Position numbers and translations under genes: made by a program. DNA of 64,000 bases, taken from positions 2,919 to 66,918 of the IMG/VR virus record IMGVR_UViG_3300030107_002828; one strand, written 5' to 3'. The DNA comes from a virus. The notes beneath the pieces are model-generated. The model had not been told where the DNA came from and made no database searches. It worked only from the letters and a program-made list of their open reading frames with translations. Below, one piece after another: positions 10,758 through 58,800 of this stretch. The stretch's first letter is position 1. The number at the start of each line of letters is the position of its first letter.

Positions 10758-11222
10758 TTATTCTTCTTCTTTTTCTTCGTAATAATCTCCTGAATCTATT
10801 AACTCTTCTTTTTTCTCATCCCAGTATTCCATGTATATATCTTCCCACCAGTGTTCTAATTCATAGTTGAAATCATACTCCATGTCTGACCATAAATGAG
10901 GTTCTACCCAAACATCACCACCTGATGTTAGTTCGTCCAGAGCTCTTGAAGACCAATCATTGTAATCCTCATAGTAATAACCATCTTGTGACACATAAGG
11001 TCTCTCGTCATGAGTACACCAGTATATATCATAGCTATCGCACGTTGATTCACTGTATATTTTTAAACTGTGTCTATTATCAACCCAATCACTTGTGTTG
11101 TCTAATTTACCACCATATTCTTCTTGGATATATTCTAATAACCAAGGACCATCTGGCTCTTGCATAAAGCCATCTGCTTCTAATTTTTCGATGATTATCT
11201 CATCTGTTAATAATTCTGCCAT
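10758..11222 (-). CDS. Very acidic hypothetical protein, 154 aa
   Basis: A 154-residue, strongly acidic protein rich in Asp, Glu, Tyr and Trp, with an EEKEEE C-terminus. No motif is recognised. Very acidic small phage proteins are often DNA mimics that block host nucleases or DNA-binding proteins, but that is only a compositional hint. The tRNA-like element at 11242..11350 lies just upstream, so this mRNA 5' end could be defined by processing of that RNA. Confidence 0.7.
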   Translation of the reverse strand: MAELLTDEIIIEKLEADGFMQEPDGPWLLEYIQEEYGGKLDNTSDWVDNRHSLKIYSESTCDSYDIYWCTHDERPYVSQDGYYYEDYNDWSSRALDELTSGGDVWVEPHLWSDMEYDFNYELEHWWEDIYMEYWDEKKEELIDSGDYYEEKEEE

Positions 11223-11241: not shown

Positions 11242-11350
11242 TGGACGTGGCAGGAATCGAACCTGCGTTACCATGACTCGGTTGTATTCAGTGTAATACA
11301 CTTCCGTAATGCCTAAAAAGGACACACATACACTTACTGTTACCACGTCT
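11242..11350 (-). ncRNA. tRNA-like element TLS1 (acceptor and T-arm only recognisable)
   Basis: On the minus strand the 3' part is a textbook T-arm (GCAGG, loop TTCGATT, CCTGC) followed directly by CACGTCC and a discriminator A, and the 5' end AGACGTG pairs with it over 6 of 7 bases. The 79 bases between contain no normal D-arm or anticodon arm, position 8 is not U, and only small hairpins can be drawn. It fills the gap between two genes. It is therefore called tRNA-like, not a tRNA. A degenerate or intron-bearing tRNA is the alternative. Confidence 0.6.
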
Positions 11351-11378
11351 CGGTCAATACCTTATCACGCCCTTTTGT

Positions 11379-11642: not shown

Positions 11643-12050
11643 TTAATTTAAGTAATTTCTTTTGTAAAATTCTAACATATAGTTTAATCTAGCCATTCCA
11701 CTATATATTTTTTCTCTTGCTATCATCACATATTTGTGAGTCACTAGTTTGTCTCCATCTAGCATAGTCCATCTAACATTTTGCTTATATTGTTTGTTAA
11801 GCTGATAATTAGATGAACAACTATTCTGATTTCTTACATATCCTGTTTTAAACACAGCTAATCTTAGTTTATCTTTAGAGTAAAACCATTGTTTATTTCT
11901 CCAATATTTTCTAGCAGGTGTAGGAAATTCAAATTCCCTTGTCCCATTTTTAGCTTGTCTTTGTGTAGTTACTTCTTGAATACCATATTCTATGAGTAAT
12001 CTTCTTACGTAAGCATCTTCAAATGCTTGTTCTCTTTGTCTCCAATTCAT
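11643..12050 (-). CDS. Hypothetical basic protein, 135 aa
   Basis: A 135-residue basic protein rich in Arg, Lys, Tyr and Gln, with mostly helical N- and C-terminal parts and a central beta-like segment. Composition suggests nucleic-acid contact. It overlaps its upstream neighbour by 1 base, and both sit behind promoter P2. No known domain was recognised. Confidence 0.65.
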   Translation of the reverse strand: MNWRQREQAFEDAYVRRLLIEYGIQEVTTQRQAKNGTREFEFPTPARKYWRNKQWFYSKDKLRLAVFKTGYVRNQNSCSSNYQLNKQYKQNVRWTMLDGDKLVTHKYVMIAREKIYSGMARLNYMLEFYKRNYLN

Positions 12051-12280
12051 TATTCAGATTTTAAAAATTCGTTTCCATACATAATATCTGCACCGCTAAC
12101 ATCATAACTATGCTTGTCAGTAAACATTAGTATGTCTCTAATAGTATCTAATGGTAAATCATACCAACCATCTGAAGCCATAAGTTTATACTTAAGTCTT
12201 TTAGCTGTACGCCATTTGTGAGAAGCCAATCTTATCTTTATTTGATAATGAGGCTTGAGTTGTTGCCATGTGTTTTTCAT
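12050..12280 (-). CDS. Hypothetical protein, 76 aa, first gene behind promoter P2
   Basis: A 76-residue protein with a basic N-terminal half (KIRLASHKWRTAKRLKYKL) and a C-terminal part holding YDLPLDTIRDILMF. The ATG is 19 bases after the predicted start of transcription at G 12300. It is the first gene of a leftward unit controlled by P2 and its adjacent operator palindrome. Function unknown. Confidence 0.65.
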   Translation of the reverse strand: MKNTWQQLKPHYQIKIRLASHKWRTAKRLKYKLMASDGWYDLPLDTIRDILMFTDKHSYDVSGADIMYGNEFLKSE

Positions 12281-12337: not shown

Positions 12338-12342
12338 TATAG

Positions 12343-12416
12343 ACGCGGGAGTAGGATTCGAACCTACGACCTCGAGCTTATGAGGCTCGCGAGCTGACCA
12401 ACTGCTCTATCCCGCA
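12343..12416 (-). tRNA. tRNA with CAT anticodon (Met, or Ile2)
   Basis: A complete cloverleaf on the minus strand: acceptor TGCGGGA with TCCCGCG, D-arm AGAGC with GGT in the loop and GCTC, anticodon stem CGAGC / GCTCG around loop CTCATAA (anticodon CAT), variable AGGTC, T-arm GTAGG TTCGAAT CCTAC. CCA is not encoded. The first pair is T-G. The anticodon stem lacks the three G-C pairs of bacterial initiators, so elongator Met or lysidine-modified Ile is more likely. It is the only canonical tRNA in the window and sits at the 3' end of the large structured RNA block. Confidence 0.9.
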
Positions 12417-12627
12417 ATATTTTGGGTGATACTGTGCACGTATCCACGCTTTCATAATTGTACTAAGTGAACATCTTGCCTAAGCTCAGAACGCAAAGTC
12501 ACAATTGGGGTCTAGTGTCTAACTCATTAACCTGACTCATATTTACCAGGTTGAGAAATTTGTAGTTTTCCGCGTATCCGTTTAGTAGCTACTACACTAT
12601 TCCGTCCTTCGTGTTTTAACCCATTAG

Positions 12628-12675
12628 AGAGCATAGCGGGATTCGAACCCGCACTTTAGTACCGTAGTATGCTCT
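12628..12675 (-). ncRNA. tRNA-like minihelix TLS2 (acceptor plus T-arm, no D or anticodon arm)
   Basis: Minus strand: GAGCATA, 15 bases, then T-arm GCGGG TTCGAAT CCCGC, then TATGCTC. The 7-bp acceptor is perfect (8 bp with one flanking A-T pair) and the T-loop matches the tRNA consensus, yet only 15 bases replace the whole D, anticodon and variable region. The shape is that of the acceptor minihelices known as minimal substrates for RNase P and tRNA-binding proteins. Confidence 0.6.
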
Positions 12676-12746
12676 GTTGCCTCTAGAGGCCTTGAGGACT
12701 TACATCTGCTTTGAACCATATAGGTGCATCAATGCCTCTTATATTT

Positions 12747-12873
12747 TAGAGGTGGTGTTTCGGAACAGGTAGTTACTAGTATTATCATTTATACCGTTTT
12801 CTGTTTTGACGCACCCCGATCGATTCTAATGCCCCGGTAATCGCCTAACGTGACCTGTATGCCACCACCTCTA
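12747..12873. repeat. Long inverted repeat: 11-bp closing stem with inner 6-bp stem
   Basis: TAGAGGTGGTG at 12747..12757 pairs perfectly with CACCACCTCTA at 12863..12873. Just inside, ACAGGT (12765..12770) pairs with ACCTGT (12853..12858). Between them are further short complementary blocks such as TACCG/CGGTA. The spacing suggests one folded RNA domain of about 127 bases; no terminator-like U-run follows. Confidence 0.6.
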
Positions 12874-12877
12874 TATT

Positions 12878-12937
12878 TTAGACGTGCTCGTACGTTTTTG
12901 GGTCGAGTAACAATGCCACACTCGCATCCACGTCTAA
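12878..12937. repeat. Inverted repeat: 9-bp closing stem with switch-like inner hairpins
   Basis: TTAGACGTG at 12878..12886 pairs with CACGTCTAA at 12929..12937. Inside, CGAG at 12904..12907 can pair either with CTCG at 12887..12890 or, as CGAGT, with ACTCG at 12920..12924, so two alternative inner hairpins are mutually exclusive. This is a 60-base domain adjacent to the previous stem. Confidence 0.55.
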
Positions 12938-13040
12938 GGTGTAATATTGCTTCAATTAATAACCACGCCGTGTTACCGCTACTTTAATAAGCGCACCTCG
13001 ATTTATGTATTAATTACTGTTATTATTACTACCTATTTAG

Positions 13041-13118
13041 TAACTAAAAGAGGAATCGAACCTCTTTATCCGTCGATAGTATCGCGCTCGTTAAAACGTT
13101 TACGCTCCATACTTAGTT
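13041..13118 (-). ncRNA. tRNA-like element TLS3, 78 bases, T-arm and acceptor conserved
   Basis: Minus strand: AACTAAG pairs with TTTAGTT (one G-T pair) and a discriminator A follows; the T-arm is AGAGG TTCGATT CCTCT. Length and U8/A9 are those of a tRNA, but no D-arm with GG in its loop and no 7-base anticodon loop on a 5-bp stem can be drawn; instead CGAT-ACT-ATCG forms. It may be a degenerate tRNA or a tRNA mimic. Confidence 0.5.
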
Positions 13119-13259
13119 ATCCAGTAATCTATTGATACCTAATCGGTTAGCTATTCAGTTATGTGTTCATAGTTTTATTCTATAGGAGATTTCGTAAAAC
13201 GTCTATCCCAAACCTTCAATGAACCTAATTAACCTACTCGTCTAACTATCTATCAATGA

Positions 13260-13448
13260 TTACAAGTGCCATTCTTTTAATAATTTAATGGCGTATGATT
13301 TAATTTCATTGAAAGTTCTATCATCTAACATTCCATCATCAAATGTTACTATTCTTTCTAATTGTCTTTCTATTTGACCACAGAGCTCAGTTGCTTCTTT
13401 GTCAATATAGTCTTCTTTCATCATCTCGTATGCTTTTTTACTATCCAT
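13260..13448 (-). CDS. Hypothetical helical protein, 62 aa
   Basis: A 62-residue acidic, helical protein (starts M-D-S-K-K-A-Y-E-M-M-K). It begins 1 base after the stop of the preceding gene, and its stop codon marks the edge of the structured RNA block. No function recognised. Confidence 0.6.
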   Translation of the reverse strand: MDSKKAYEMMKEDYIDKEATELCGQIERQLERIVTFDDGMLDDRTFNEIKSYAIKLLKEWHL

Positions 13449-15676: not shown

Positions 15677-15719
15677 TTAATATGAAGAGAATCGAACTCT
15701 TCCTCGTTCCAAAATATTA
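15677..15719 (-). ncRNA. tRNA-like minihelix TLS4
   Basis: Minus strand: TAATATT, 11 bases, T-arm AAGAG TTCGATT CTCTT, then CATATTA and a discriminator A. The acceptor pairs 6 of 7 bases, all A-T, so it is weaker than TLS2, but the T-arm is complete and the 43-base layout (acceptor, short linker, T-arm, acceptor) is the same. It occupies the gap between two genes. Confidence 0.45.
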
Positions 15720-15967: not shown

Positions 15968-16034
15968 AGTTTTTAATTTTAAGTTATTATTTATTTTAAT
16001 TATTTAAGTTATTAGTTATTAACTGTTTACATTT

Positions 16035-16066
16035 ATATTATCAATATGAATTAGTATTAACATTCG
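16035..16066 (-). promoter_or_regulatory. Phage promoter P5 (T7-geometry 32-bp motif)
   Basis: Minus-strand motif CGAA, 3 bases, TAATACTA, 9 bases, GATAATAT. Predicted start at G 16042. It has three operator-like palindromes 31-83 bases upstream and a 74-base leader before ATG 15967, the longest of the six. Confidence 0.75.
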
Positions 16067-16096
16067 AATTCTCATAAGTGTATATTTGTTTATATG

Positions 16097-16149
16097 TGAC
16101 AAATAGTCAATAGTTATTGGACAAATTGTCATAATGTGACATATTGTCA
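16097..16149. promoter_or_regulatory. Cluster of three TGACA-N3-TGTCA type operators
   Basis: Three inverted repeats: 16097..16109 (TGACA-AAT-AGTCA), 16119..16131 (GGACA-AAT-TGTCA) and 16137..16149 (TGACA-TAT-TGTCA), spaced 22 and 18 bases start to start, so roughly on one face of the helix. The same palindrome abuts P2. Likely binding sites for one phage or host regulator controlling P5. Confidence 0.55.
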
Positions 16150-16151
16150 TA

Positions 16152-16304
16152 TTATAGTTTATCAACTTTAAAAGAAGTTATATTTTTAAAATCAATATCA
16201 ATTTCAATTAGAAATTGTAATAGTTCATTGTCAATAGTATTAGTCTCATGAGTGATATATAGTGGGTCACCATGATGAAAATTGAATGTAAATTCGTAAT
16301 TCAT
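16152..16304 (-). CDS. Small protein, 50 aa, unknown
   Basis: A 50-residue acidic protein (starts M-N-Y-E-F-T-F-N-F-H-H-G-D-P-L-Y), predicted beta then helix. It ends just before the operator cluster and starts 9 bases after the end of the preceding gene. Function unknown. Confidence 0.6.
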   Translation of the reverse strand: MNYEFTFNFHHGDPLYITHETNTIDNELLQFLIEIDIDFKNITSFKVDKL

Positions 16305-16312
16305 AGTTATTA

Positions 16313-16510
16313 TTATTTTATTAATTTAAATGTGTTTTGTGTGTAATATGATTTTGATAATATTTTAATAACATTGTCTAAATCTTTATTATTAATTATT
16401 AGAATATTATTAATTATATTAAATGAATATTTTAATTTGTTAGAATTAAATAATAAATTATATATTATTATTTTATTTGATTTAATTATTTTAATATAGT
16501 TATATTTCAT
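16313..16510 (-). CDS. Small Asn/Ile/Lys-rich protein, 65 aa, first gene of leftward arm
   Basis: A 65-residue protein taken from ATG 16510 (M-K-Y-N-Y-I-K-I-I-K); the frame continues to 16552 but that stretch lies in promoter P6, whose predicted start (G 16531) is 20 bases before 16510. The gene is extremely AT-rich even for this genome, giving long Asn, Ile and Lys runs. It is the outermost leftward gene and probably the first expressed. Its coding status rests on promoter position more than on recognisable features. Confidence 0.5.
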   Translation of the reverse strand: MKYNYIKIIKSNKIIIYNLLFNSNKLKYSFNIINNILIINNKDLDNVIKILSKSYYTQNTFKLIK

Positions 16511-16523
16511 ATTGTTGTTTATT

Positions 16524-16555
16524 ATATTATCTATATAAACTCGTATTAACATTCG
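16524..16555 (-). promoter_or_regulatory. Phage promoter P6 (T7-geometry 32-bp motif), outermost leftward promoter
   Basis: Minus-strand motif CGAA, 3 bases, TAATACGA, 5 bases, TATA, then GATAATAT. This copy even has TATA directly before the predicted start G 16531, as in T7 promoters. It drives the first leftward gene from the divergent switch region. Confidence 0.78.
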
Positions 16556-16612
16556 AAGTAGAGGTTAGCATGATTATCTAGGAAAAATTGAATAATATAG
16601 GGTAGAAATGTT

Positions 16613-16670
16613 AAAAAACTGTCAAAAACGCAAAAAAAAGCTGATTTTCCTGGAGAAAACGGAAAAAAAA
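16613..16670. promoter_or_regulatory. Phased A-tracts, probable intrinsically curved DNA
   Basis: A/T tracts of 4-8 bases are centred near 16615, 16626, 16635, 16646, 16657 and 16666, about 9-11 bases apart, which matches the helical repeat. Six phased tracts are enough to bend DNA strongly. The tract is followed directly by a G-rich run. Confidence 0.55.
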
Positions 16671-16753
16671 GGGAGGGGGGACGCAATTGCTCTCTATACG
16701 TTAAGGTACCGGTACATTTGGGAGGAAGGTACCTTTATATAACCGTCCTTATA

Positions 16754-16774
16754 ATATTATACTACGTATAATAT
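16754..16774. promoter_or_regulatory. 9-bp inverted repeat operator-like site, rightward leader
   Basis: ATATTATAC and GTATAATAT flank a 3-base centre (TAC). A third copy of the half-site GTATAATAT occurs at 16783..16791. The site lies 140 bases before the first rightward gene, so it could be an operator or a promoter -10 region for the structural arm. Confidence 0.45.
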
Positions 16775-16914
16775 CTAGATAGGTATAATATATTATATAA
16801 TATTACACACTATTTTTTTTATTTACCTAAATATAGCAGAAAAAATAAAATGTAAATTTCTTTAATTATATGTAAGTATATATACTGTACACTAATCAAG
16901 AAAAACAACTACAA

Positions 16915-17442
16915 ATGGCAATAATCTACACTTATCCCTCTGCAACTCCTTCAGCTGGAGATTACGTACTGGGAACTCAGTTTGATAATTCGATCAAAGA
17001 AAATGTAACTGTCCAGTTTAGTATTGCTAATATAAATAGTTTAGCTACTCAAGGATATTTAGAAACAACGGTAACTGTTACCAATGCAGAATTAACAGCT
17101 TTACAAACTACAGACAAAACCTTAATTGCAGCACCAGGCGCAAACAAAGCAATAAAAGTATTATCAATATCAGCATTCTTAGATTACACTGCACCAGCAT
17201 TTACTTTTGCTAATGACATACTAGTTTCATTAAACTCAGTTACATTTGGCACAATTCCTTTAGCAATAGGTCAAGCAGTAGCTGATACAGTATACAGCGC
17301 AATTCCAGTAGCAGGAATACTTGCTACAAATACAGCATTATTATTAACTACAGCAGGAGCTGTTGGAGGTGGTGGCGGTAGTGCGATGCAAGTAAAAATA
17401 AGATACCAAATACTAGATATATCTACAACATCTAGTTTTTAA
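16915..17442 (+). CDS. Fibre-like structural protein with MAIIYTYP N-terminal module
   Basis: A 175-residue protein, first gene of the rightward arm. Residues 1-40 (MAIIYTYP then DYVLGT) are shared with the next gene, suggesting a common attachment module; the rest is beta-rich and Ala/Thr/Val-rich with a Gly run (GGGGGS) before a final strand region. Composition fits virion fibre or decoration proteins. The leader is AT-rich with no strong ribosome-binding site. Confidence 0.65.
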   Translation: MAIIYTYPSATPSAGDYVLGTQFDNSIKENVTVQFSIANINSLATQGYLETTVTVTNAELTALQTTDKTLIAAPGANKAIKVLSISAFLDYTAPAFTFANDILVSLNSVTFGTIPLAIGQAVADTVYSAIPVAGILATNTALLLTTAGAVGGGGGSAMQVKIRYQILDISTTSSF

Positions 17443-17455
17443 AAAAATTTAATTA

Positions 17456-18043
17456 ATGGCAATAATATACACTTATCCCACGGTATTTCCTGAGGCCAAT
17501 GATATATTATTGGGAACTGAGAAAGATGCTACGTTAAGAAATCCCACTAAGAACTTTTTAGTAAAAGATTTAGCAGCATATATAATTACATCATTTGGAG
17601 GGACAAGCTTAGATGTCCCTATATTTATTGATGTAACAGATCCAAGTACAGGAATAACGACAACTGAATTAACTGATTCTATAATGTCACAGGATGCAAG
17701 TCCTGGAGGAACAACATTAACAGTAACGGGGAATTTAGAAGTTACTGGTACATTAGAAGTCGATGCAGCATTACAAGATAGTACAGCTTCAACAGGAACT
17801 GCTAACCAACAATTAGTATCAACAGGCACTGCAACTCAATGGAAAACTCAAACAGGTATATTTCCAAATGTTTCAGCTCTTGTATGGACAATAACACATA
17901 ACGGTGAATGGGGACCATATCCATCAGTCACTGTAATAAACAATAACGACGTCGTATTATATGGCGAAATAGAATATTTATCAACAACACAACTAACAAT
18001 AACCTTTTCAGCCACGTTTGCTGGGACTGCTTATTTAAATTAA
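17456..18043 (+). CDS. Tail-fibre-like protein with MAIIYTYP N-terminal module
   Basis: A 195-residue protein whose N-terminus (MAIIYTYPT, then DILLGTEKDATLRNPTKNF) repeats that of the preceding gene, followed by a fibre-type segment (TLTVTGNLEVTGTLEVDAAL, then STGTANQQLVSTG) and a beta-sandwich-like C-terminal domain with VWTITHNGEWGPYPSVTVIN. That C-terminal pattern is common at phage fibre tips. Probably part of the tail or a head fibre; host receptor contact is inference. Confidence 0.7.
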   Translation: MAIIYTYPTVFPEANDILLGTEKDATLRNPTKNFLVKDLAAYIITSFGGTSLDVPIFIDVTDPSTGITTTELTDSIMSQDASPGGTTLTVTGNLEVTGTLEVDAALQDSTASTGTANQQLVSTGTATQWKTQTGIFPNVSALVWTITHNGEWGPYPSVTVINNNDVVLYGEIEYLSTTQLTITFSATFAGTAYLN

Positions 18044-18050
18044 ACACAAA

Positions 18051-20717
18051 ATGGCAATAAATTTTTTAAATGATATTGATTTAAACCAGAATGAAGCATT
18101 TCATTTAGTTTTAGAAAATCAAGCAAACGACACAGCGGCTGGAACACCAGTAGACGGCCAAATGTATTATGACACAGGAACCAATGCGGTAAAAGTTGGT
18201 GAAGGTGGTGTGTGGGTAGCATTAGCAGCTTCTTCAGGCGCAGGTTCAGTAACAAGTGTAGGTATAGACGTAGGAACAGGAATTAGCGTATCAATGAACT
18301 CTGGCTCTAATCCAATAACTGGTGCTGGCGAATTCTTACTAACAAACACAGGTGTAACAAGCATCGTAGCTGGTTCAAACATAAGTATTAGTGGTGCAAC
18401 AGGAGCTGTAACAATTAGTTCAACAGACACTACATATAGTACAATGACCTCAACTACTTTAGGTTTAGGTAAATTATTTAGTGATACAGAACAAACAGAA
18501 ACAGCTGAACCAGTAACCTCTACAACTGATAGAACTTATGGAATTCAAATGAATTCTTCGGATCAATTAGTGGTTAATGTTCCTTGGACAGATACAACTG
18601 GTGCAGTAACATCAGTAGATGAAAAAGCTGCAGGAACTTCAACTGGTACTCCAATAGTAGTAGATCCAACCACTGGAGCTGTTGAAGTACAATCAATGGC
18701 TTACGCAGGTACAACAAATGTAGGTCACGTACCAACTGGTGGTGGCGCAACAACCTTCTTACGTGGAGACGGAACATGGGTTACTCCTACAGATACAGAT
18801 ACAGGTGTAACTGGTGTAACATTAGCTACAGGAACTTCAGTTGGTGCTCCATTAACAGAAAGTATAGCAACAAGAGAATTAACTTTAACCTCTATGGCTT
18901 ATGATGGTGGAACTAATATAGGTTATGTTCCAACAGGTGGTTCAGGTTCTACGTTTTTACGTGGTGATGGTACTTGGGTAACACCTACTAATACAAACCA
19001 TACTTATTCATTAAGTGTAGGTGCTGTATCTTCAAACGAAAGCACATTAACATTAGTTGGTGCTGGAGGTGGTAGTGATAGTACTGCTAAATTCTCAGGT
19101 ACTACTAATGAAATTGAAATTACAACTCCTTCTACAGGGGACGGTGGTGATGTTACAATAGGTTTACCTGCGGCTGTAACAATAGCAACTTCTTTAGCTA
19201 TTTCAGGTTCAGGAGCTGCTGCGTTAGATATTAGTGCAGGTAAAGCACAAACCGCTGCTACAGCTGCATCGGATCCAGATGCTACACTAACAACAAAGGG
19301 TTATGTTGATGGATTAGTTTCAGGTGGTTTAAATTTTAAAGGAACATTTAGAGCTGATACTGGTTTAATTCTTGGTGGTGGTTCAACATATATATACCAA
19401 TTAACAGGTAGTGCATTTGATCCATCTGCAACAAGGGTTGAAGTAGAAGTTGGAGATTACTATGTTGTAGCAACAGCCGGTGGAGATTTCTACGGTGATG
19501 GTGGAACAGGTACTTGTTCTCCTACACGACCATTAACAGTTGGTGATTCAATAATCGGTCTTACCGCTGCTAGTGCAACAGCATCTACATGTGCTAACTG
19601 GTCAATAGTAGAATCTAACGAAGGTGTTACTACATTTACAAATACTAATGGAACATATGTTTCTGCTAGTACTGTAAACAGTGGTGCAACTGGAGCAGTT
19701 ACAGTAGGTACAATAGATTTATCTGCGGTAGATGGTACAGCAACTAACACAGTAAGATTTTTAGATAAAAATAATAAATGGTCTGTTCCAGCATATACAA
19801 CTAACACTGATGAAACATATGATCTTAATGTATCAGATGATGGAGATAATGTAGATTTAAATCTTACTTCTACTTCTGGAACTGATAATTCAACTGTACA
19901 ACTTACAGCTGGTACTGGTATTACATTAACACCAACAGGTTCAACTGAAGTAACAATAGCAACAACTGGTTTAGATAACTATCAATATTGGACATTAGCT
20001 GGTGATTCAGGAAGTGGTCAAGAAATTGCTAGTACTAACACAGCTACATTTGCGGGTGGTACAAAAATTACAACCGCAGATTCAGCGACAGATACTTTAA
20101 CAATTTCGCATGCTACGCAATCACAAACTAATACAACACCAAGTTCTACATTAACAAGTGGAGGTACGTTTACGGCGCTTTCAGCTAATGTAACTGTAGA
20201 TAGTACAGGTCACGTTACAGGACAAGCTCTTGAAACTTACACCTTACCAACTTCTGATAATTATAGTTCATGGACATTGGCTGGTGATTCGGGTACTCCT
20301 CAAAGTATAGGAAGTACCGATACTGCTACTATAGCAGGTGGAACAGGTATTAGTACGGTAGCAGGTTCTACAGATACTGTAACAGTAAGTCTTGACAGTG
20401 GTTCAACAGGTGCTTGGTCTGGTAATTTAAGTGGATCAACATCAGGTATTAGTAATGGAACTCCAGGATCTGGTGGTTATACAACATTTACTCTTACAAC
20501 TGCTACATTGTTTGGAACAACAACAGATTCTAGACAAGTATTAGTAGAAGTAATGCAGATTGCTGATAATGATCCAAGCGCAAGTACACCAGCATATAGT
20601 ACAGTTTATCCATCAGTAGCAAGAGCTGCTGCAACAACAATAGAAATTAAATTTAAAGGTACTATTGCAGATGATAAATATTACGCAATATTATCACATG
20701 CTGGAAATAATTCATAA
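18051..20717 (+). CDS. Large tail-fibre / appendage protein, repeat-rich
   Basis: An 888-residue beta-rich fibre protein, Thr/Gly/Ser-rich throughout. It begins MAINFLNDIDLN, then a GTPVDGQMYYDTGTNAVKV segment typical of fibre N-terminal regions. Internal repeats include FLRGDGTWVTP twice (near residues 236 and 302), WTLAGDSG twice (near 647 and 741), and GVTSIVAGSNISISG, which recurs in the next gene. A DPDATLTTKGYVD block sits near residue 410. Repeats and shared segments would allow recombination between fibre genes. No enzymatic depolymerase motif seen. Confidence 0.8.
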   Translation: MAINFLNDIDLNQNEAFHLVLENQANDTAAGTPVDGQMYYDTGTNAVKVGEGGVWVALAASSGAGSVTSVGIDVGTGISVSMNSGSNPITGAGEFLLTNTGVTSIVAGSNISISGATGAVTISSTDTTYSTMTSTTLGLGKLFSDTEQTETAEPVTSTTDRTYGIQMNSSDQLVVNVPWTDTTGAVTSVDEKAAGTSTGTPIVVDPTTGAVEVQSMAYAGTTNVGHVPTGGGATTFLRGDGTWVTPTDTDTGVTGVTLATGTSVGAPLTESIATRELTLTSMAYDGGTNIGYVPTGGSGSTFLRGDGTWVTPTNTNHTYSLSVGAVSSNESTLTLVGAGGGSDSTAKFSGTTNEIEITTPSTGDGGDVTIGLPAAVTIATSLAISGSGAAALDISAGKAQTAATAASDPDATLTTKGYVDGLVSGGLNFKGTFRADTGLILGGGSTYIYQLTGSAFDPSATRVEVEVGDYYVVATAGGDFYGDGGTGTCSPTRPLTVGDSIIGLTAASATASTCANWSIVESNEGVTTFTNTNGTYVSASTVNSGATGAVTVGTIDLSAVDGTATNTVRFLDKNNKWSVPAYTTNTDETYDLNVSDDGDNVDLNLTSTSGTDNSTVQLTAGTGITLTPTGSTEVTIATTGLDNYQYWTLAGDSGSGQEIASTNTATFAGGTKITTADSATDTLTISHATQSQTNTTPSSTLTSGGTFTALSANVTVDSTGHVTGQALETYTLPTSDNYSSWTLAGDSGTPQSIGSTDTATIAGGTGISTVAGSTDTVTVSLDSGSTGAWSGNLSGSTSGISNGTPGSGGYTTFTLTTATLFGTTTDSRQVLVEVMQIADNDPSASTPAYSTVYPSVARAAATTIEIKFKGTIADDKYYAILSHAGNNS

Positions 20718-24086: not shown

Positions 24087-25640
24087 ATGTCCGATAAACT
24101 TGTGAAACATCTTAACTTCGGTCAAGATGCAAAAGATCAAATATTTAAAGGGATAAATAAACTCACTAAAGCTGTTAGCTCCACATTAGGAGCTAGCGGC
24201 AAGTGTGTTATCCTGGAAGATGATCAAGGAAAACCCATTATAACCAAAGATGGTGTAACGGTTGCAAACTCAGTAGTATTGTTCGATGCTGTTGAAAACA
24301 TGGGTGCAACATTACTAAAAGAAGCTGCCAGAAAAACTGTTGAAGAAGCAGGAGATGGCACAACTACAGCTACAGTATTAGCTCAAGCAATATTAACAGA
24401 AGCTGTAAAAGAAAATATTAATACTAGAGATTTAAAAGAAGGTATTAATTCAGGTGTTAAAAAAGTTGTAAATTATTTAGACAATATTAAAATAGATGTT
24501 ACAGGTGACATGATTAATCAAGTCGCTACTATATCTTCAAATAATGACAAAGAATTAGGGGAACTAATTGGAGGAGCATTTAAAAGTGTAGATAAAACAG
24601 GTATTGTAATAATGGAAGAATCTAAAGATTTAAATTCTTCTGTTGAAATAATTGATGGTATGCAGTATGATAAACCTTTAAAAAGTTTACATTTTGCTAC
24701 AGATAAAAACAAAGAAATTGCTGAATTAAAAAATCCTTCGGTTCTAATAGTTGAATCTAAAATTGAAAACATACGTAAAATACAAGGTATTTTAGAGCAT
24801 GTTATAAAAACAAATGAATCTTTATTTATTATAGCAGATGTAGAACCTCAAGTTCTCGCTGCATTAGCAATGAATAAGATGAAGGGTAATATAAAAGTGT
24901 GTATTGTAGATGCTCCAACTTATGGATTCACAAAAAAAGAAAAATTAAATGATTTAGCTTTAATGACTGGAGCTACAGTTATTAATGAAGATTTAGGTGA
25001 TGATATGGATTTAATACATCCTCAACATTTAGGAAAAGCTAAAAAAATAACTAGTAATAAAGAAAATACTATAATACAAGTTAAAGAAACTCCAGAAGCT
25101 GTAAAGGATTTGATTGAAGAAATTCAACAAAAACAAGCAAAAGAAAAAATTCCTGGATATAAACTAGCATATGAAAAAAGACTATCGTTATTAGCTGCTA
25201 AAGTAGCCGTCGTCAAAGTAGGTGCTAACTCTGAAATTGAATTAAAAGAGAAGAGTGATAGAGTCGAAGATGCAATTTGTGCTACAAAAGCCGCAATAAA
25301 AGAAGGTATAGTTCCCGGTGGTGGTGTTGCTTTACTTAACGCTGCGTTTAATAATGATGAAGATAATATGGGGGAAAAAATATTAATGAGAGCAATATTA
25401 GCCCCTTATAAAAAAATATTAGATAACGCTGGTATTGAGAAAATTACAATGCCTGAAAAAAACGGGTTTGGTATTAATGTGGTTACAGGAAATATGGTAA
25501 ATATGATTGACAGTGGAATTATAGACCCACTATTAGTCACAAAAAGTGCGTTACTAAATGCGGCTTCTGTAGCGACAACTATCTTATCAACTGATTGTAT
25601 AATAAATAATATTAGAATTCATGAGGGCGATAGGAAATAA
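24087..25640 (+). CDS. groEL: Phage-encoded chaperonin GroEL (Cpn60)
   Basis: A 517-residue group I chaperonin subunit that should form the folding ring and hydrolyse ATP. ATP-site motifs are present: STLGASGK, D55 in TKDGVTVA, D90-G-T-T-T in [10 protein letters not shown]395 in RVEDAICAT, and PGGGVAL. The equatorial, intermediate and apical order is normal. The C-terminal Gly-Gly-Met tail of bacterial GroEL is missing and the protein ends IHEGDRK, a shortening also seen in other phage copies. It is followed by groES with a 20-base overlap, the reverse of the bacterial order. It probably folds capsid or tail proteins. Confidence 0.95.
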
Positions 25641-42242: not shown

Positions 42243-43475
42243 ATGCCTAAACCAGATGGAGGATTAATCCAAGAAAATAATTTACAGTATTACGCGGGAG
42301 CGCAGATCATCTATACTGACGCGGCGTTAAACGTATCAAAAGCATATACATTTACGTTTAATACTCAGTTGTCAATGGGTAGTAGTTCTAGTTTTTCTAA
42401 TACAGATCCTGATTACACATTAAATAATTTTAGAATATACACAAGTCCAACTGGATTAGGAAATTGGACAGAATATTTAACTACTTATGTTTTAACTTTC
42501 ACTAAAAACGGGGCTAATACTAATAGTATTATAACTTTAGGATTAGCTCAAGCAGTAGGAACTTATGTAAAAGTTCAATTAAAAGAAAATGCAGTAGAAG
42601 ATAACTATGGTAGTTATGAATATATAAAACTAAATGATATAGTTAATAACTTTATAGTAGGTTATGTTGGTCAAGATAAATTAATACCTAGAGTAAATAG
42701 AACTGATGTTATTTTTCATGCTAAAAGAGGTTTACAGGAATTCAGTTATGATACTTTAAAAAGTATAAAATCTCAGGAATTAACAATTCCACCTAGTCTA
42801 GCAGTGACAATTCCTCAAGATTATGTTAATTATGTTAAATTATCTTGGGTAGATGGATCAGGTGTAAAACATACTATATATCCTACACAATTAACTAGTA
42901 GTCCATGGGAAGCACCTGTTCAAGCTGCTGATGGTGAAATTGTACAAGATAATTTTGGAGATAATATAGAAGGAACGTCTCAAATAAATGAAAGATGGGA
43001 AACATCTAACCCTAACAATATAACAGGTTTGTATCCATCAGACTCTAATAATTCAAATATATGGATGTATGATTGGTGGGGTGAAAGTTTATGGGGATAT
43101 GGTGGTTTTTATGGTCAAAGATATGGAGGTGATCCTGTTAATATGCAGATGAATGGTTGGTTTAATATAGATGATAGACGAGGAACTTTTAATTTCTCTA
43201 GTGATTTAGAAGGAAAATTAATTTTATTAGAATATATTTCTGATGGATTAGCTTATGATTTAAATACTAAAGTTCCTAAATTAGCAGAAGAAGCAATGTA
43301 TCAACATTTACTTTATAGTATAATGTCTACAAGAACCGCAACAGCTGCTATAGCACCCCAATATAAAAGACAAAGATATGCTGCGTTACGTAATGCGAAA
43401 ATTAGATTATCTAATATTAAATTAGATGAAATAGTTCAAGTTATGCGTAATAAATCTAAATGGATAAAACATTAA
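42243..43475 (+). CDS. Probable connector / tail-tube-type protein, 410 aa
   Basis: A 410-residue protein, beta-rich in the first third and Trp/Tyr-rich in the second (WMYDWWGESLWGYGGFYGQRYGG). It contains YVGQDKLIPRVNRTDVIFHAKRGLQEFSYDTLKS, a helix typical of gp4/gp11-like tail-tube or connector proteins. It ends basic (IVQVMRNKSKWIKH). It lies between the adaptor and the large tail protein. Role inferred from order and pattern. Confidence 0.65.
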   Translation: MPKPDGGLIQENNLQYYAGAQIIYTDAALNVSKAYTFTFNTQLSMGSSSSFSNTDPDYTLNNFRIYTSPTGLGNWTEYLTTYVLTFTKNGANTNSIITLGLAQAVGTYVKVQLKENAVEDNYGSYEYIKLNDIVNNFIVGYVGQDKLIPRVNRTDVIFHAKRGLQEFSYDTLKSIKSQELTIPPSLAVTIPQDYVNYVKLSWVDGSGVKHTIYPTQLTSSPWEAPVQAADGEIVQDNFGDNIEGTSQINERWETSNPNNITGLYPSDSNNSNIWMYDWWGESLWGYGGFYGQRYGGDPVNMQMNGWFNIDDRRGTFNFSSDLEGKLILLEYISDGLAYDLNTKVPKLAEEAMYQHLLYSIMSTRTATAAIAPQYKRQRYAALRNAKIRLSNIKLDEIVQVMRNKSKWIKH

Positions 43476-52814: not shown

Positions 52815-55800
52815 ATGCAAGACAAACTAAACCAGATCCTTTTTAAAAGTGATTATTGGAAAAACTTATCTAATCCTGAAAAGAGTGCTCTTAATTATCC
52901 TTATGCAGCAGGAGAAGAGCAAAGAAGAAAGTGGTTAGAAGAACATGGTGTTCTTGAACAAACTAATGTTGCGGTTGAAGAAGAAGTTTCTGGTGATGAT
53001 AATATTGAAGAAGTTGAGGTTGAGGAAGTAGAACCTAAAGAAGAGTCGGTATCTACGGAGGTTTTAGCTGGTAGAAATGGTGCTGAAAAAATGTGGAAAT
53101 ATTTTAAGGATAATGGACAAGTAACTCAAGATTTTGAAACTTGGTACAAAAAATTAAAAGAAAACCCTTCAGCTCAAGAGAAATTATATCAATTTGGTAG
53201 AGGTAAAGGTTTTATTACACAGGATTATAATACATGGAAAAATAAATTAACTGGTTATACGGGAACAGAAAATATAACTATTTTTGGGGAAACTGTTAAT
53301 GATGAAGAACAAAATACTGAAAATCAAGCTAATAGTTGGAGCTCTCAAAACGATGCTATAGTAACTAAAATAAGTAGATTAAGAAATAACCCTATATTAT
53401 TTACTCAAGCTGATGTTGATGCTGGTATTGCTAAACCAAATCAAATAGGTAATATTAATGCAGCTGCTACAAATGAAAAAATAAAAGAATTACAAGATTC
53501 TGCACCTACTATATATACGTTTGATGAAGAAGAGGCAAGAGCTACTTATAAAGCTGAAAGAGAACAAGAATTAACTGATTATGAAAAAGAAAGAGCAGGT
53601 AGTTTAGGTATTACAGAAGAAGGTGAAGAAATTTACGACAGTGGTTCTATGTTTAAAGATGATAAATTAATGCATGGCTACTTGTTAAAGCATTGGAACA
53701 AAACAGGTTTATTATCAGGTAAAGTAAATATTGACAAGTTAAGAACTGTAGCTGAAAGAATAGGTTTTGATATGAATAAATTTGAAAGATTATCAAAAGC
53801 TAGATATGATACTGGAGAGGGAAGTTTAGCTAGAGAGCTGTTGTTAAAGCTAGAAGAATACATGGTAACTAAAAGTACAGGAGGTAGACAATTTATATTA
53901 AAAGGTAATATGAGTGGTTATAGTACTGGAAACGTTCCTGATATATCTAAAAGAGTAAGTGTGCTTGACGATAGAGATGTTCTTACAGATGAAGAAATAG
54001 AATCAAGAATACAATTAGATAAAGATAGAGTTGCTCTGTGGCAAAAAGGTGAACTTGAATTAGATACTAAAGAGTTAGCTGGAATAATAGGTATTAGACC
54101 TGAAGCGCAACAGTTTGTTAATTCATTTTTTCCAGAATCAATAGATAAAGAAGACGATGTAAATAAAATAGCATCTGCAGCTATTAGTAAAGCAGCGCAA
54201 GCAGATCCTAGGTTTGCATTAATACAAAATGAGATTAATGAACACTTAGTAGATCAGTCAAAAGAAAAATGGTCTGAACTATCTAAAAAATATGGAGAGA
54301 ACGGGGAAATTACTACTCAAACAGATTTAGAAGCTGCTCAAAAAGAATTTGCTGAATGGTATAATAAAAGCTTTAATGAATCTTTGCAAAATAATAAAGA
54401 AGCAACTGATTTATTTCAAATGTATGGAATAGCGGGAGAAAGAGCTTTAGATAAAAGACTTAAAGAAGATAGAAACTATAAGCCAGGAATGAAAGATGAT
54501 TATGTCTTAAACTGGGTTAATGATCAACTAGATAAATACGAGGATGATGATAGTTTTCATGGTAAAGTAAGAGAGGAATTAGCTTATATGGCACAGGCTT
54601 TTCATAAAGTACCTGTGACAACAGAAGAATGGACAAATAGTTTTGAAGTATCACTTGCTGGAGGACAACAACGTAGAAGACAGAAAATAGTAAATGAACT
54701 TAATTGGGGTTTAGAAAATGGTAAGATAACCAACGACATGACTCTAGGTGAAGCTAGAAAATATGTTAAAGGATTAGATGATAGATTAACTTGGCATGAT
54801 TGGGGTTGGACAGATAATGACACTGTAGGTGATTATTTATCTAGAAAAGAAATTAGAAAAGAAAATACAGAAGATAGAATACAGTTTGATTTAGACGAAA
54901 GAGATGCAGCTCTTAAACATTTAAATAATTTTGTTACTAGAGAAGTAGAAGATGGAATGTTTGACAGTATTGAAGGTTTTGGTAGTACAATAGTTGGAGG
55001 TATTGATCAAATAACCCACATGGCTCCTCGTATAGCGGGTTATGGTTTAATGACAGCTGGTACTTTAGCTACAGTTTTTAGTGGTGGTACTGCTACGCCT
55101 GTTGGAGCTGGATTATTCTATACTGGTATGGGGTTAAGTGCTATTGGTAACACTGTTCAAGGAGCTATGGAATATGCTGATATTTACATGAGTTCATTAG
55201 AAAATAAAATGACTGAACAATATGGAGAAGGAGGTTTTACCACAGATGAATATATTCAAGCATTAAATGAAGGATTAGGTATGCATCAAGGAGCAGCTGT
55301 AGCAGGTGGTGTAGGTGTTGCGGCTTCTGAATTTGCGTTTGATGTACTTGGTTCTAAACTTGGAGGATCTGGAGCTGGTTTATTATTTAAAAATCCAGCA
55401 ATGCAAACTATTGTAAAGAACACTTTAGGTAGATATTTAGCAAGAGCAGGAACAATGTATGGAGAATATAAATTAGGTCAGTACAAAGAAGGTGTAACAG
55501 AAGGATTCCAGTCTTATTTATCACAAGCTACAACTAATATGGCATCAGGATATGCGTCTCCATTTAGTAGAAATATTGATTTTGATCAGATATATACCGA
55601 ATATAAAGCTGGTAAGAAAATGGGTAGTTTATTTGGAATGGGTGGTATCGCTGGTCAGTTTAAAGGAGGTTTATATTCAGCTGATGGATATGTAGCTAAT
55701 GCTACTAAAATTGCAGAAAATATTGATATGTCTCCAGATTCATCTACGTTCTTAACAGCTAATGCTCATTTTGATCAATTGATAGAAAATGTTAATTCAG

Positions 55801-58800
55801 ATACAAAGTTAGATCCTAAGCAAAAAAGAGAAGCTATAAAAAATATTTCTGACATTAGAAGTTCTACAATAAAAATTCCTAAAACTATTACTGGTGAAAC
55901 AAAAGGTAAATTAATAGATTTATTAATTGAAAAGAAAACATTAGAAACTAAAATTAAAGCCGTAGGAGATACGGATATTAGCGCTAGTGATATATCTAGA
56001 AAAAATGCTATTGGTGAAGAAATACAAAAAATAGTAGATGATGCTAATGTGGAGTTAGCACTAGATAAAAATGTTGGTAATGTTAGACAAATTGTACATA
56101 AAAGCTCTAAAGGTAAAATTACAATAGATGAAGTAGCTGATGCTAAAGAAGCTAACGCGTTTGCAAAAAGTGAAAGATTACAAGGCTGGAAAACAAAGTA
56201 TTCAAGTAATCAAGGTACAATATTACAAAACCCTAAGACAGGCGAACAAAAAATAATAATAAATAGAGATCAAGCTCTTAAAGATCAGGCGGTTAATGTA
56301 GCTGGTCATGAGTTTTTACATGGTTTATTATTTGAAACAGTAAAAAATAGTCCTGAGACTGCTATAAATATGGGTAATGCTTTAGATTCTGAACTAAAGA
56401 AATTAAAAGTAAGTGAAGATAGTAAATATTATAAGCGTTTAGAACGATATAAAAATGATCCAGAAGCTATGACAGCTGAAGAAAAACTAACTTTATTTTC
56501 TGATGCTTTAGCTTCAGGTGATTTAAAATTTAATGAAAATATCTTTACTCAAATAGGAGATAATATTAGAAGGGTTTTACAAGCTGTTGGATTAAAAGGA
56601 ATAAAATTTAATAATGGTAGAGATGTTTATAATTTTATAAAAGACTACAACAGTTCTATAGAAAAAGGCGAACTTAACATAGCACAAGAAAAATTGTTAG
56701 CTGGTAAAGCTGAAGGTGATTTAATAGTAGATGAAGTAATAGATACTGATAAAAAAGCAAAAGCTTCAAAACCTGGAACTAAAACTACAATTCCTAAATC
56801 AGCACCAACAAAAGATATATATAAAGATTTTGCAGAAAGAACGTGGGCAGAAGACTTACAAAAATCTAAAGATAATATAAATACACAGTTTGGAGCAGGT
56901 ACTGTTGAAACAATTAAACAGACTGTTCCCTGGGAGACATTTAAAAAACGACAAATTGAAAGAGGAATAGACTGGGACGGCCAAATAAAAGCTAATGATG
57001 AAAGTAGAATGCAACGAGATTATGAGGCTGTTCAAAGAGATATTAAGAAACAGAAAGATGCAATTAAAGCTGAAAAATTTAGAACAACAGCACCAAGAGA
57101 TAAATTTGGAAGCATAGATACAGATAAAATTTTAGCTGAAAAAAAGAAGAAAGAAATACAAGGTAAATCTTCTAAATCTGATAAGAAAGTTAGTAAAGCT
57201 AGACAAGCAGACTTAGATAGAATGACGCCTAATCAAAGACGAGCTGAAGAAGGATATTCACCTTGGGAACTGGTTAGACAACCTGATGGATCTTTAAAAC
57301 TGGATAGTAAATTTATAGGTAGAACCGCAGCGATAGCAGCTTTAAAACGTCAAGGTGATTCCAATCAGGGTATGGATTCGTTGTTAAAAAAGGACAAAGC
57401 TTTTGAACCTCAATACAGTGCTAAGTCATCAAAAGGCGATACTCAATCATTATCTAATCTTACTAAAGAATATCAAGATGGTAATTATGATAATGTAGAA
57501 GATTTAGCAGCGCAATATCAAGCTGCGGGTAGAGATGCGTTAAAAAGATGGGCTGGACAGCGGAAAGTTCCTTTAAATCTTAGTAATCCACAGTTTAATA
57601 ATGAAGTAACAAGTTTGTTAAACAAAGAGTTTCCTAGTTTTATTAAGAATTTTGATCCATCAAAATCAGAAGCATCTACATACATGAATCAAATTGCTAA
57701 AAGAGTTGGTCCTAAAATTGTAGAAGAAGCAACTAGAAAAGGAAAGCAAGTTAGTCAAGATGTTTTAAGTGAAAAAGGAGTAGCTGTAGAAACTACAACT
57801 CAAAAAGATTTTGATTCAACTAAACAAAAAGATACAGGTAGAAAGAAGAAATATCCTTCTTCAATACCTGCTGTTAAAAATCAAATAACAGAAAATGTTG
57901 CTGCAGATTTAGTAGGTGGAATTGTTGATGGGAAACCTGTGGGATTAGCAAAAGATATAATATCTAGTATTAATAGAAATACTGATCCTGAAAAAGTAGC
58001 TCAAAATATAATAGCTGACACTAAAGATAAAAGTGTTATGCGTACTATGAGAGAGTTAGTAGGTAAATGGGGATCACCAGAGTACAACGCTTTTGTAAAC
58101 ACAATAATTGATCAAGGATTGATTGGTACAATACCAGCTTCTACAATAAAGCGAAGACTAGGTAGACAAAGTAATGTTGATTCTGGCTTAATTAATTATA
58201 AAAAAATAGGTAAGACAGATCAAATAAAAGTTAAAGATGGTAAGAAAACTTATTCACGTCCTGATGTCTATGCTATAACTAAATTAGATAAAAATAAGTT
58301 AAAAGATTATTATAAAGATAACGAAAAAAGACAACAGTCTTTATTTAGCATGTTAACTGAAGGTATCATGGCTGAGGGTGTACAAACTCTTAGAAATGAT
58401 AAAAACTTCATGGATAAGTTACAAGATGTATTAGAACTTAAAAAATCTCCATTAACTGCTGAGGAATTTATGGATGGTTTAGAGCAGAAGTTAGATCAAC
58501 GTACTAAAGAAGATAGATCATTAGATGAAGTAACAGTTAAGTCAGCTAAAAAAGATGTTCCTCTTACAGCTAAAGAAAAAAAGCAATTAAAAGATGATGC
58601 TAGAGTTCAAATCAAAGAGTTAAACGATTATAATACTTTACCTACTAAAGCAGGTGTTAAGTTAACAAAAGACGAAAAACAAATCAAGCAAGTAGGAACT
58701 ATAACAGCTCATTATAAAATGGGTGATAGTTTCCATGTTCCTAGTACTATTGCAGGAGGAACTTCAACATCTATATATCAAGTACAAAGTGAAGCTAATA

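What the first reader, a model, noticed from the sequence alone, without database searches (positions are those of the whole stretch)
12417..13259. Large structured non-coding region next to a tRNA, candidate ornate phage RNA
About 840 bases with no credible protein gene, locally higher GC, many stable inverted repeats (11-bp, 9-bp, 6-bp stems) and embedded tRNA-like elements. Known: GOLLD and ROOL RNAs are large, highly structured, phage-borne and often adjacent to tRNAs. Inference: this may be such an RNA or a new class from a marine Bacteroidota phage.
Basis: partly seen in the sequence, partly recalled or inferred. Interest (0 to 1): 0.8.

Follow-up and report, generated by a model that had tools for sequence, protein, structure and literature searches.

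The report
Phage array of swappable structured RNAs
A stretch of a marine flavobacterial phage that codes for no protein is a string of small folded RNA domains, some tRNA-like, whose protruding arms are swapped between different RNA scaffolds in related phages; a companion RNA nearby is a stripped-down, tag-less version of the bacterial ribosome-rescue RNA (tmRNA).

Summary
Window 12417-13259 has no credible gene, raised GC and many real stems, all explained by RNAs on the minus strand, the strand of the flanking genes. It is not GOLLD or ROOL: no Rfam match except tRNA. It is a mosaic of separable RNA domains upstream of tRNA-Met: RNA-E, tRNA-like TLS2, J, F, B, K, minimal tRNA-like TLS3, H and G. 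Relatives of the principal domains occur in dozens of IMG/VR phages. E, TLS1, B and TLS3 show compensatory base changes. Each scaffold has a conserved core and a variable arm, and the same arm modules recur on different scaffolds (96 cross-scaffold arm matches against 1 in a shuffled control). The same minus-strand gene block carries a 130-nt tag-less tmRNA (TLS1, TLD only, 11242-11372) with the alanine determinants G3.U70 and A73. 93 distinct mini forms were collected, and unannotated ones lie in cultured Streptomyces phages. The only published phage example I found is mycobacteriophage DS6A; a DS6A-like TLD was reported to inhibit host tmRNA. Most likely function (inferred): host-processed stable RNAs, at least one a trans-translation decoy. 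Transcription and function are untested.

The parts
13146..13249 (-). RNA-E: basal stem GTTAG/CTAAC, core ACGAGTAGGTTAATTAGG...CACATAACTGAATAG, arm = module GGTTTGGGATAGACGTTTTACGAAATCTCC
   Evidence: 42 distinct instances in a first locus set; exact core in 67 viral contigs; compensatory changes in P1 and P2; its arm is the arm of TLS1 in L109
13041..13119 (-). TLS2: tRNA-like, acceptor AACTAA/TTAGTT, T-arm AGAGG-TTCGATT-CCTCT, variable arm, no anticodon arm recognised
   Evidence: T-stem and acceptor variants that keep pairing in relatives (read from the listing)
12950..13018 (-). J: hairpin domain closed by AATTAATA/TATTAATT
   Evidence: one clear relative, L006 9144-9192; weak
12878..12937 (-). 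F: three-way-junction-like module closed by TTAGACGTG/CACGTCTAA
   Evidence: z -2.70; the same module is the arm of TLS1 in L059 and L176; core pattern in 14 viral contigs
12748..12872 (-). RNA-B: basal stem AGAGGTGGTG/CACCACCTCT, core GGCATACAGGTCACGTTAGG...AACAGAAA...ACTACCTGT
   Evidence: relatives with compensating basal and inner stems; z -2.46
12685..12740 (-). K: hairpin AGAGGC/GCCTCT with module TGCACC...GGTTCAAAGCAGATGT
   Evidence: 97% copy in L003; related arm in the TLS1 of L198
12628..12675 (-). TLS3: minimal tRNA-like element, 8-bp acceptor + 5-bp T-arm, 15-nt linker CTACGGTACTAAAGT, no D stem or anticodon arm
   Evidence: Rfam tRNA 23 bits, below gathering; 5 sequences with compensatory acceptor and T-stem changes (and window); z -3.05
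12507..12622 (-). H: domain starting GGGTTAAAACACGAAGGACGG, closed by GGG(G)/CCC(C)
   Evidence: same 5' core in L003, L109, L120, L153, L166, L183, often directly after TLS1
12456..12506 (-). G: module ACTTTGCGTTCTGAGCTTAGGCAAGATGTTCACTTAGTACA
   Evidence: 95% identical over 44 nt to the TLS1 arm in L171; not stable by folding alone (z +1.26)
12342..12416 (-). tRNA-Met (CAU), no encoded CCA
11242..11372 (-). TLS1: tag-less tmRNA-like RNA (TLD + variable arm), acceptor GGGCGTG/CACGTCC with G3.U70 and A73; its 3' end lies 20 nt before the start codon of the next gene (10758-11222)
   Evidence: Rfam tmRNA 36.6 bits, E 1.4e-12, whole model in 134 nt; a whole-model hit in 15 of 16 related phages and a T-arm-only hit in the 16th, 3 above the gathering score; covariation

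Best explanation
12417-13259 is an array of small structured RNA domains on the minus strand, inside the minus-strand gene block of a flavobacterial podovirus. Each domain is a conserved scaffold (RNA-E, RNA-B, the tRNA-like TLS2 and TLS3, H) that carries an exchangeable structured arm. Shown by comparison: conserved cores with compensatory changes, recurrence of the same arm modules on different scaffolds, and a tag-less tmRNA (TLS1) that belongs to the same set and moves in and out of the array. Inferred: the array is transcribed with the flanking genes; RNase P and RNase Z cut at the tRNA-like elements and CCA is added; TLS1 is charged with alanine (G3.U70, A73), binds SmpB and EF-Tu, and competes with host tmRNA, so trans-translation is blocked or tuned during infection. 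The other scaffolds most likely act as stable displays for arms that bind host or phage factors, and the arms turn over by recombination between co-infecting phages.
For: Mosaic order, and cassettes moving between sites (TLS3 before the 135-aa gene and TLS1 inside the cluster in L003). Covariation: TLS1 12 of 12 pairs kept in 27 unique cores, with 4 Watson-Crick types at four pairs; A73 in 93/93; G3.U70 in 25/27. 13 of 21 pairs with two-sided changes in 14 mini-tmRNAs from diverse phages. RNA-E stems; TLS3 and B. Arm exchange: 96 cross-scaffold arm pairs at E<=0.01 against 1 with shuffled arms; module m1 found in RNA-E, TLS1, m4 and m11 contexts. Of 97 RNA-E loci (some overlapping contigs), 62 have TLS1 within 700 nt downstream. 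Precedent: the DS6A TLD-only tmRNA; a similar molecule strongly inhibits tmRNA, perhaps by titrating SmpB (PMC4131195; PMC11915505, both citing Mao et al. 2009).
Against: No expression data. No promoter or terminator signal above chance. The bulk fold is not exceptional, and G, J, H, E and TLS2 are not stable by folding alone. TLS1 itself lies outside the given interval, so its function need not apply to E, B, F or H. Function of the arms is unknown. Charging, SmpB binding and processing are inferred from sequence only.
Confidence: 0.8

Rival explanations
1. One large multi-domain ornate RNA (GOLLD/ROOL-like in working) made of E, TLS2, J, F, B, K, TLS3, H and G, which may form an RNA assembly near the tRNA.
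For: The domains are contiguous with short linkers; position next to tRNA-Met; GOLLD and ROOL are phage-borne and often near tRNA islands, and GOLLD has a less conserved 5' region (PMC12286853).
Against: No Rfam match; domains occur in different order, number and place in relatives, including apart from each other between genes; tRNA-like elements would invite cleavage.
Confidence: 0.2
2. The tRNA-like elements serve mainly as punctuation: RNase P/Z cut sites that process the polycistronic transcript and define mRNA 5' ends (TLS1 ends 20 nt before a start codon).
For: TLS1 and TLS3 sit between genes in several phages; position of TLS1 relative to the 154-aa ORF.
Against: Does not explain preserved G3.U70 and A73, the Rfam tmRNA score over the whole model, RNA-E and RNA-B, or the swapping of elaborate arms.
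Confidence: 0.15
3. Remnants of a decayed tRNA/tmRNA island and selfish hairpin inserts without function.
For: Phages gain and lose tRNA genes (general knowledge); modules nest in hairpin loops as mobile hairpins do.
Against: Compensatory changes and long-term conservation of cores over dozens of phages are not expected of decaying sequence.
Confidence: 0.05

Closest known systems
TLD-only tmRNA of mycobacteriophage DS6A (PMC4131195; PMC11915505; Mao et al. 2009 as cited there)
   Same: TLS1: little more than the tmRNA tRNA-like domain, no tag, phage-borne; a similar molecule was reported to inhibit host tmRNA
   Different: TLS1 has a variable, exchangeable arm of about 16 to over 100 nt, is found in many phages across several lineages, and is part of a wider RNA array; the DS6A sequence itself could not be fetched for comparison
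GOLLD and ROOL RNAs (PMC12286853)
   Same: Phage-borne, structured, next to phage tRNA; function unknown
   Different: No model match; many short shuffled domains instead of one conserved architecture
tmRNA (ssrA), RF00023, one-piece or permuted; e.g. the tmRNA of Maribacter phage Panino
   Same: Acceptor with G3.U70, A73, D-loop GG(U)UU(C/U)GAC, T-arm
   Different: No tag reading frame, no mRNA-like domain; Panino carries a real permuted tmRNA instead
tRNA
   Same: T-arm and acceptor of TLS2/TLS3
   Different: No D stem and no anticodon arm in TLS3; ARAGORN calls neither

Membership tests
GOLLD (Rfam) | match to the Rfam covariance model | tested here: not met
   no match at gathering nor at E up to 10; none in 8 related loci
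ROOL (Rfam) | match to the Rfam covariance model | tested here: not met
tmRNA (TLS1, 11242-11372) | tRNA-like domain with G3.U70, A73, degenerate D-loop, T-arm | tested here: met
tmRNA (TLS1) | tag reading frame / mRNA-like domain | tested here: not met
   82-nt and even 62-nt members leave no room; the arms are unrelated between members (folds)
tmRNA (TLS1) | Rfam gathering score of 47 bits | tested here: inconclusive
   36.6 bits in the window, but 53.1-64.7 bits in three relatives
TLD-only tmRNA (DS6A kind) | TLD without tag in a phage genome | tested here: met
   compared with the descriptions in PMC4131195 and PMC11915505
TLD-only tmRNA (DS6A kind) | inhibits host tmRNA, perhaps by titrating SmpB | not testable with these tools
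   reported for a DS6A-like molecule only
permuted (two-piece) tmRNA | 3' acceptor piece encoded before the 5' piece | tested here: not met
   TLS1 runs 5' acceptor - arm - T-arm - 3' acceptor; Panino shows the permuted order for contrast
tRNA (TLS2, TLS3) | cloverleaf with anticodon arm | tested here: not met
   ARAGORN finds only tRNA-Met; TLS3 23 bits, below gathering 29, with the middle deleted

The most novel reading that the evidence does not exclude
A modular phage RNA system: several unrelated RNA scaffolds (a tmRNA-derived one among them) display interchangeable structured arms that are exchanged between scaffolds and phages and nest in one another's loops, as an RNA counterpart of variable protein domains. 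The arms would bind and titrate host translation, RNA-processing or defence factors.
Probability: 0.4. Interest if true: 0.9.

Novelty: categorically new. Interest (0 to 1): 0.78.

Why it matters
Structured RNAs are normally seen as fixed architectures. Here conserved cores swap elaborate arms between different RNA families, which is a mode of RNA evolution I know no example of, and it supplies many natural scaffold-arm combinations for structure work. The tag-less tmRNAs turn a single reported curiosity (DS6A) into a recurrent phage gene class, and make it testable whether phages commonly sabotage ribosome rescue. Cultured Streptomyces phages that carry one are already available.

Tried and rejected
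GOLLD/ROOL membership: no match. Bulk folding energy as evidence: not significant. Nucleotide search of annotated phages with the whole region: the matches listed fall on tRNA-Met. RNA-E was not found in Panino, elemoF, phi10:1 or MW202828, and no mini-tmRNA there either: Panino's tmRNA is a permuted one. The GTDB genome scan gave 7 hits: one flavophage-type and one other mini-tmRNA on MAG contigs, the rest other tRNA-like genes, so these RNAs look phage-borne. DS6A could not be fetched by the accession I tried. Promoter/terminator scan uninformative. My regexes for some modules (m5, F, the CAGGG module and one other) in the context count, and for TLS2 stems, were too strict and returned nothing useful; F and the TLS2 stems are supported instead. 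One search ran into its time limit, but the per-element z-scores were complete.

Full report
WHAT WAS CHECKED. The window is most of a 68,850-base IMG/VR virus record. Its terminase and major capsid protein are related to Flavobacterium elemo, Cellulophaga and Maribacter phages. 12417-13259 lies between minus-strand genes (13260-13448 upstream, 12050-12280 downstream) and abuts tRNA-Met(CAU) at 12342-12416. The minimum free energy of the whole stretch is not unusual, so the case had to be made by comparison.

RELATED SEQUENCES. Neighbour proteins brought in 82 viral loci. Pieces of the region, not the whole, match these loci, in different order and at different places. In L003, for instance, TLS3 lies upstream of the 135-aa gene, and the tmRNA-like RNA, which in the window lies between two genes at 11.3 kb, is inside the cluster. 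Reading the arrays side by side resolves them into scaffolds separated by a few bases. A typical order is RNA-E, then RNA-B or TLS2 or other domains, then TLS1 or TLS3, in some phages H, then tRNA-Met. RNA-E has its exact core in 67 viral contigs. Of 97 RNA-E loci (some from overlapping contigs), 62 have TLS1 within 700 nt downstream.

STRUCTURE. RNA-E: stem P1 varies as GCTAG/CTAGC, GTTAG/CTAAC, GCCAG/CTGGC, GTCAG/CTGAC, GCAGG/CCTGC, and P2 as GCTTA/TAAGT or GGTTA/TAACT, that is, compensatory changes. TLS3: AGAGCATA/TATGCTCT, AGAACATG/CATGTTCT, AGAGCGTG/CACGCTCT. RNA-B: GAGGTGGTG/CACCACCTC, GAGACAGTG/CACTGTCTC, and inner stem ACAGGT/ACCTGT or ACTGGT/ACCAGT. TLS2: T-stems AGAGG/CCTCT, TGAGG/CCTCA, GAGGG/CCCTC, GGAGG/CCTCC (listing). 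TLS1: all 12 acceptor and T-stem pairs are kept in 27 distinct cores, with four Watson-Crick types at four of them.

TLS1 IS A TAG-LESS tmRNA. Rfam's tmRNA model spans the whole 134-nt element with E 1.4e-12. Of 16 related phages tested, 15 have such a whole-model hit (in the 16th, L069, only the T-arm was reported by Rfam, but the pattern finds the RNA); three exceed the gathering score, the best 64.7 bits in an RNA of 82 nt. All 93 keep A73, and 25 of 27 cores keep G3.U70, the alanine identity pair (established knowledge of AlaRS and tmRNA; the scan pattern itself required this A and U, so what is independent is the G at position 3 and the forms found without the pattern). Fourteen canonical minis from diverse phages share a stem, in most an A-rich internal loop and a hairpin, and 13 of 21 pairs have two-sided compensatory changes. 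Unannotated members lie in cultured Streptomyces phages LuckySocke, GiJojo and Shaeky. The kind is not unknown: mycobacteriophage DS6A has a TLD-only tmRNA, and a similar molecule, chargeable or not, strongly inhibits tmRNA, perhaps by titrating SmpB (PMC4131195; PMC11915505).

ARMS ARE EXCHANGED. The arm of RNA-E in the window (GGTTTGGGATAGACG...ATAAAAC) is the arm of TLS1 in L109 at 95% identity. Window module F is the arm of TLS1 in L059 and L176, and module G that of L171. Over all families, 96 pairs of arms from different scaffolds match at E<=0.01, against 1 when the database arms are shuffled; most of these pairs (95) are between RNA-E and TLS1 or involve the window's free modules, and B with TLS2 or TLS1 gives three. 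Module m1 (GTATGTG...CGGAAGTGTATTA) occurs in RNA-E, in TLS1 and inside two other modules. Closing stems differ while the module interior is kept, so the modules behave as units.

HOW IT PROBABLY WORKS. Shown: minus-strand structured elements, conserved cores, swapped arms, a tmRNA-like member. Inferred: co-transcription with the flanking genes, trimming by RNase P and RNase Z at the tRNA-like elements, stable small RNAs. For TLS1 a decoy role against host trans-translation is the best-supported function, by analogy with the DS6A-like TLD. For the other scaffolds I propose that the arms bind host or phage factors. I put about 0.8 on the array-of-modular-RNAs description and about 0.35-0.4 on the trans-translation decoy role of TLS1.

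NOVELTY. TLS1 alone would be a new variant of a known kind (TLD-only tmRNA). The array as a whole, with unrelated scaffolds that share exchangeable arms, has no counterpart that I know, and none of the other scaffolds is in Rfam; the rating 'categorically new' refers to that.

LIMITS. Sequence evidence only. Whether the domains are separate RNAs or one multi-domain RNA is open. Counts are of contigs in IMG/VR, with some overlapping records. J and G rest on few relatives. Isolate phages of this flavobacterial group with the array were not found among the four tested. The literature search covered open PubMed Central papers only, so 'no known example' of arm exchange between RNA scaffolds rests on a limited search and my own knowledge.

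Noticed in passing
OR725497.1 about 17974-18055; MT701595.1 about 42929-43011; PP725410.1 about 17022-17103 (L234, L235, L236): Unannotated 79-nt TLD-only tmRNAs among tRNA genes of cultured Streptomyces phages; in GiJojo the stretch is annotated as part of a hypothetical protein gene.
   Followed up: partly
PP540027.1 27557-27889 (L231): Maribacter phage Panino's annotated tmRNA is a permuted tmRNA (3' piece before 5' piece); the annotated ends overlap tRNA-Asp and tRNA-Thr and look wrong.
   Followed up: partly
window 15685-15701, minus strand: A fifth T-arm-like hairpin (AAGAG TTCGATT CTCTT) in an intergenic gap, without a clear acceptor partner.
   Followed up: no
window 24087-25640, plus strand: Phage-encoded GroEL-like chaperonin gene (517 aa), judged from the translation only.
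   Followed up: no
window 16000-16900: GC falls to 0.17 and the GC skew changes sign where minus-strand genes give way to plus-strand genes; possibly a divergent promoter or origin region.
   Followed up: no
window 52815-62717, plus strand: A 3300-aa open reading frame, possibly an internal or injected virion protein; not analysed.
   Followed up: no
L212, L213, L215, L217 (GTDB contigs): Bacterial tRNA-like genes with G3.U70 acceptor and no obvious D stem that are not mini-tmRNAs of the phage type; unusual tRNAs worth a look.
   Followed up: no
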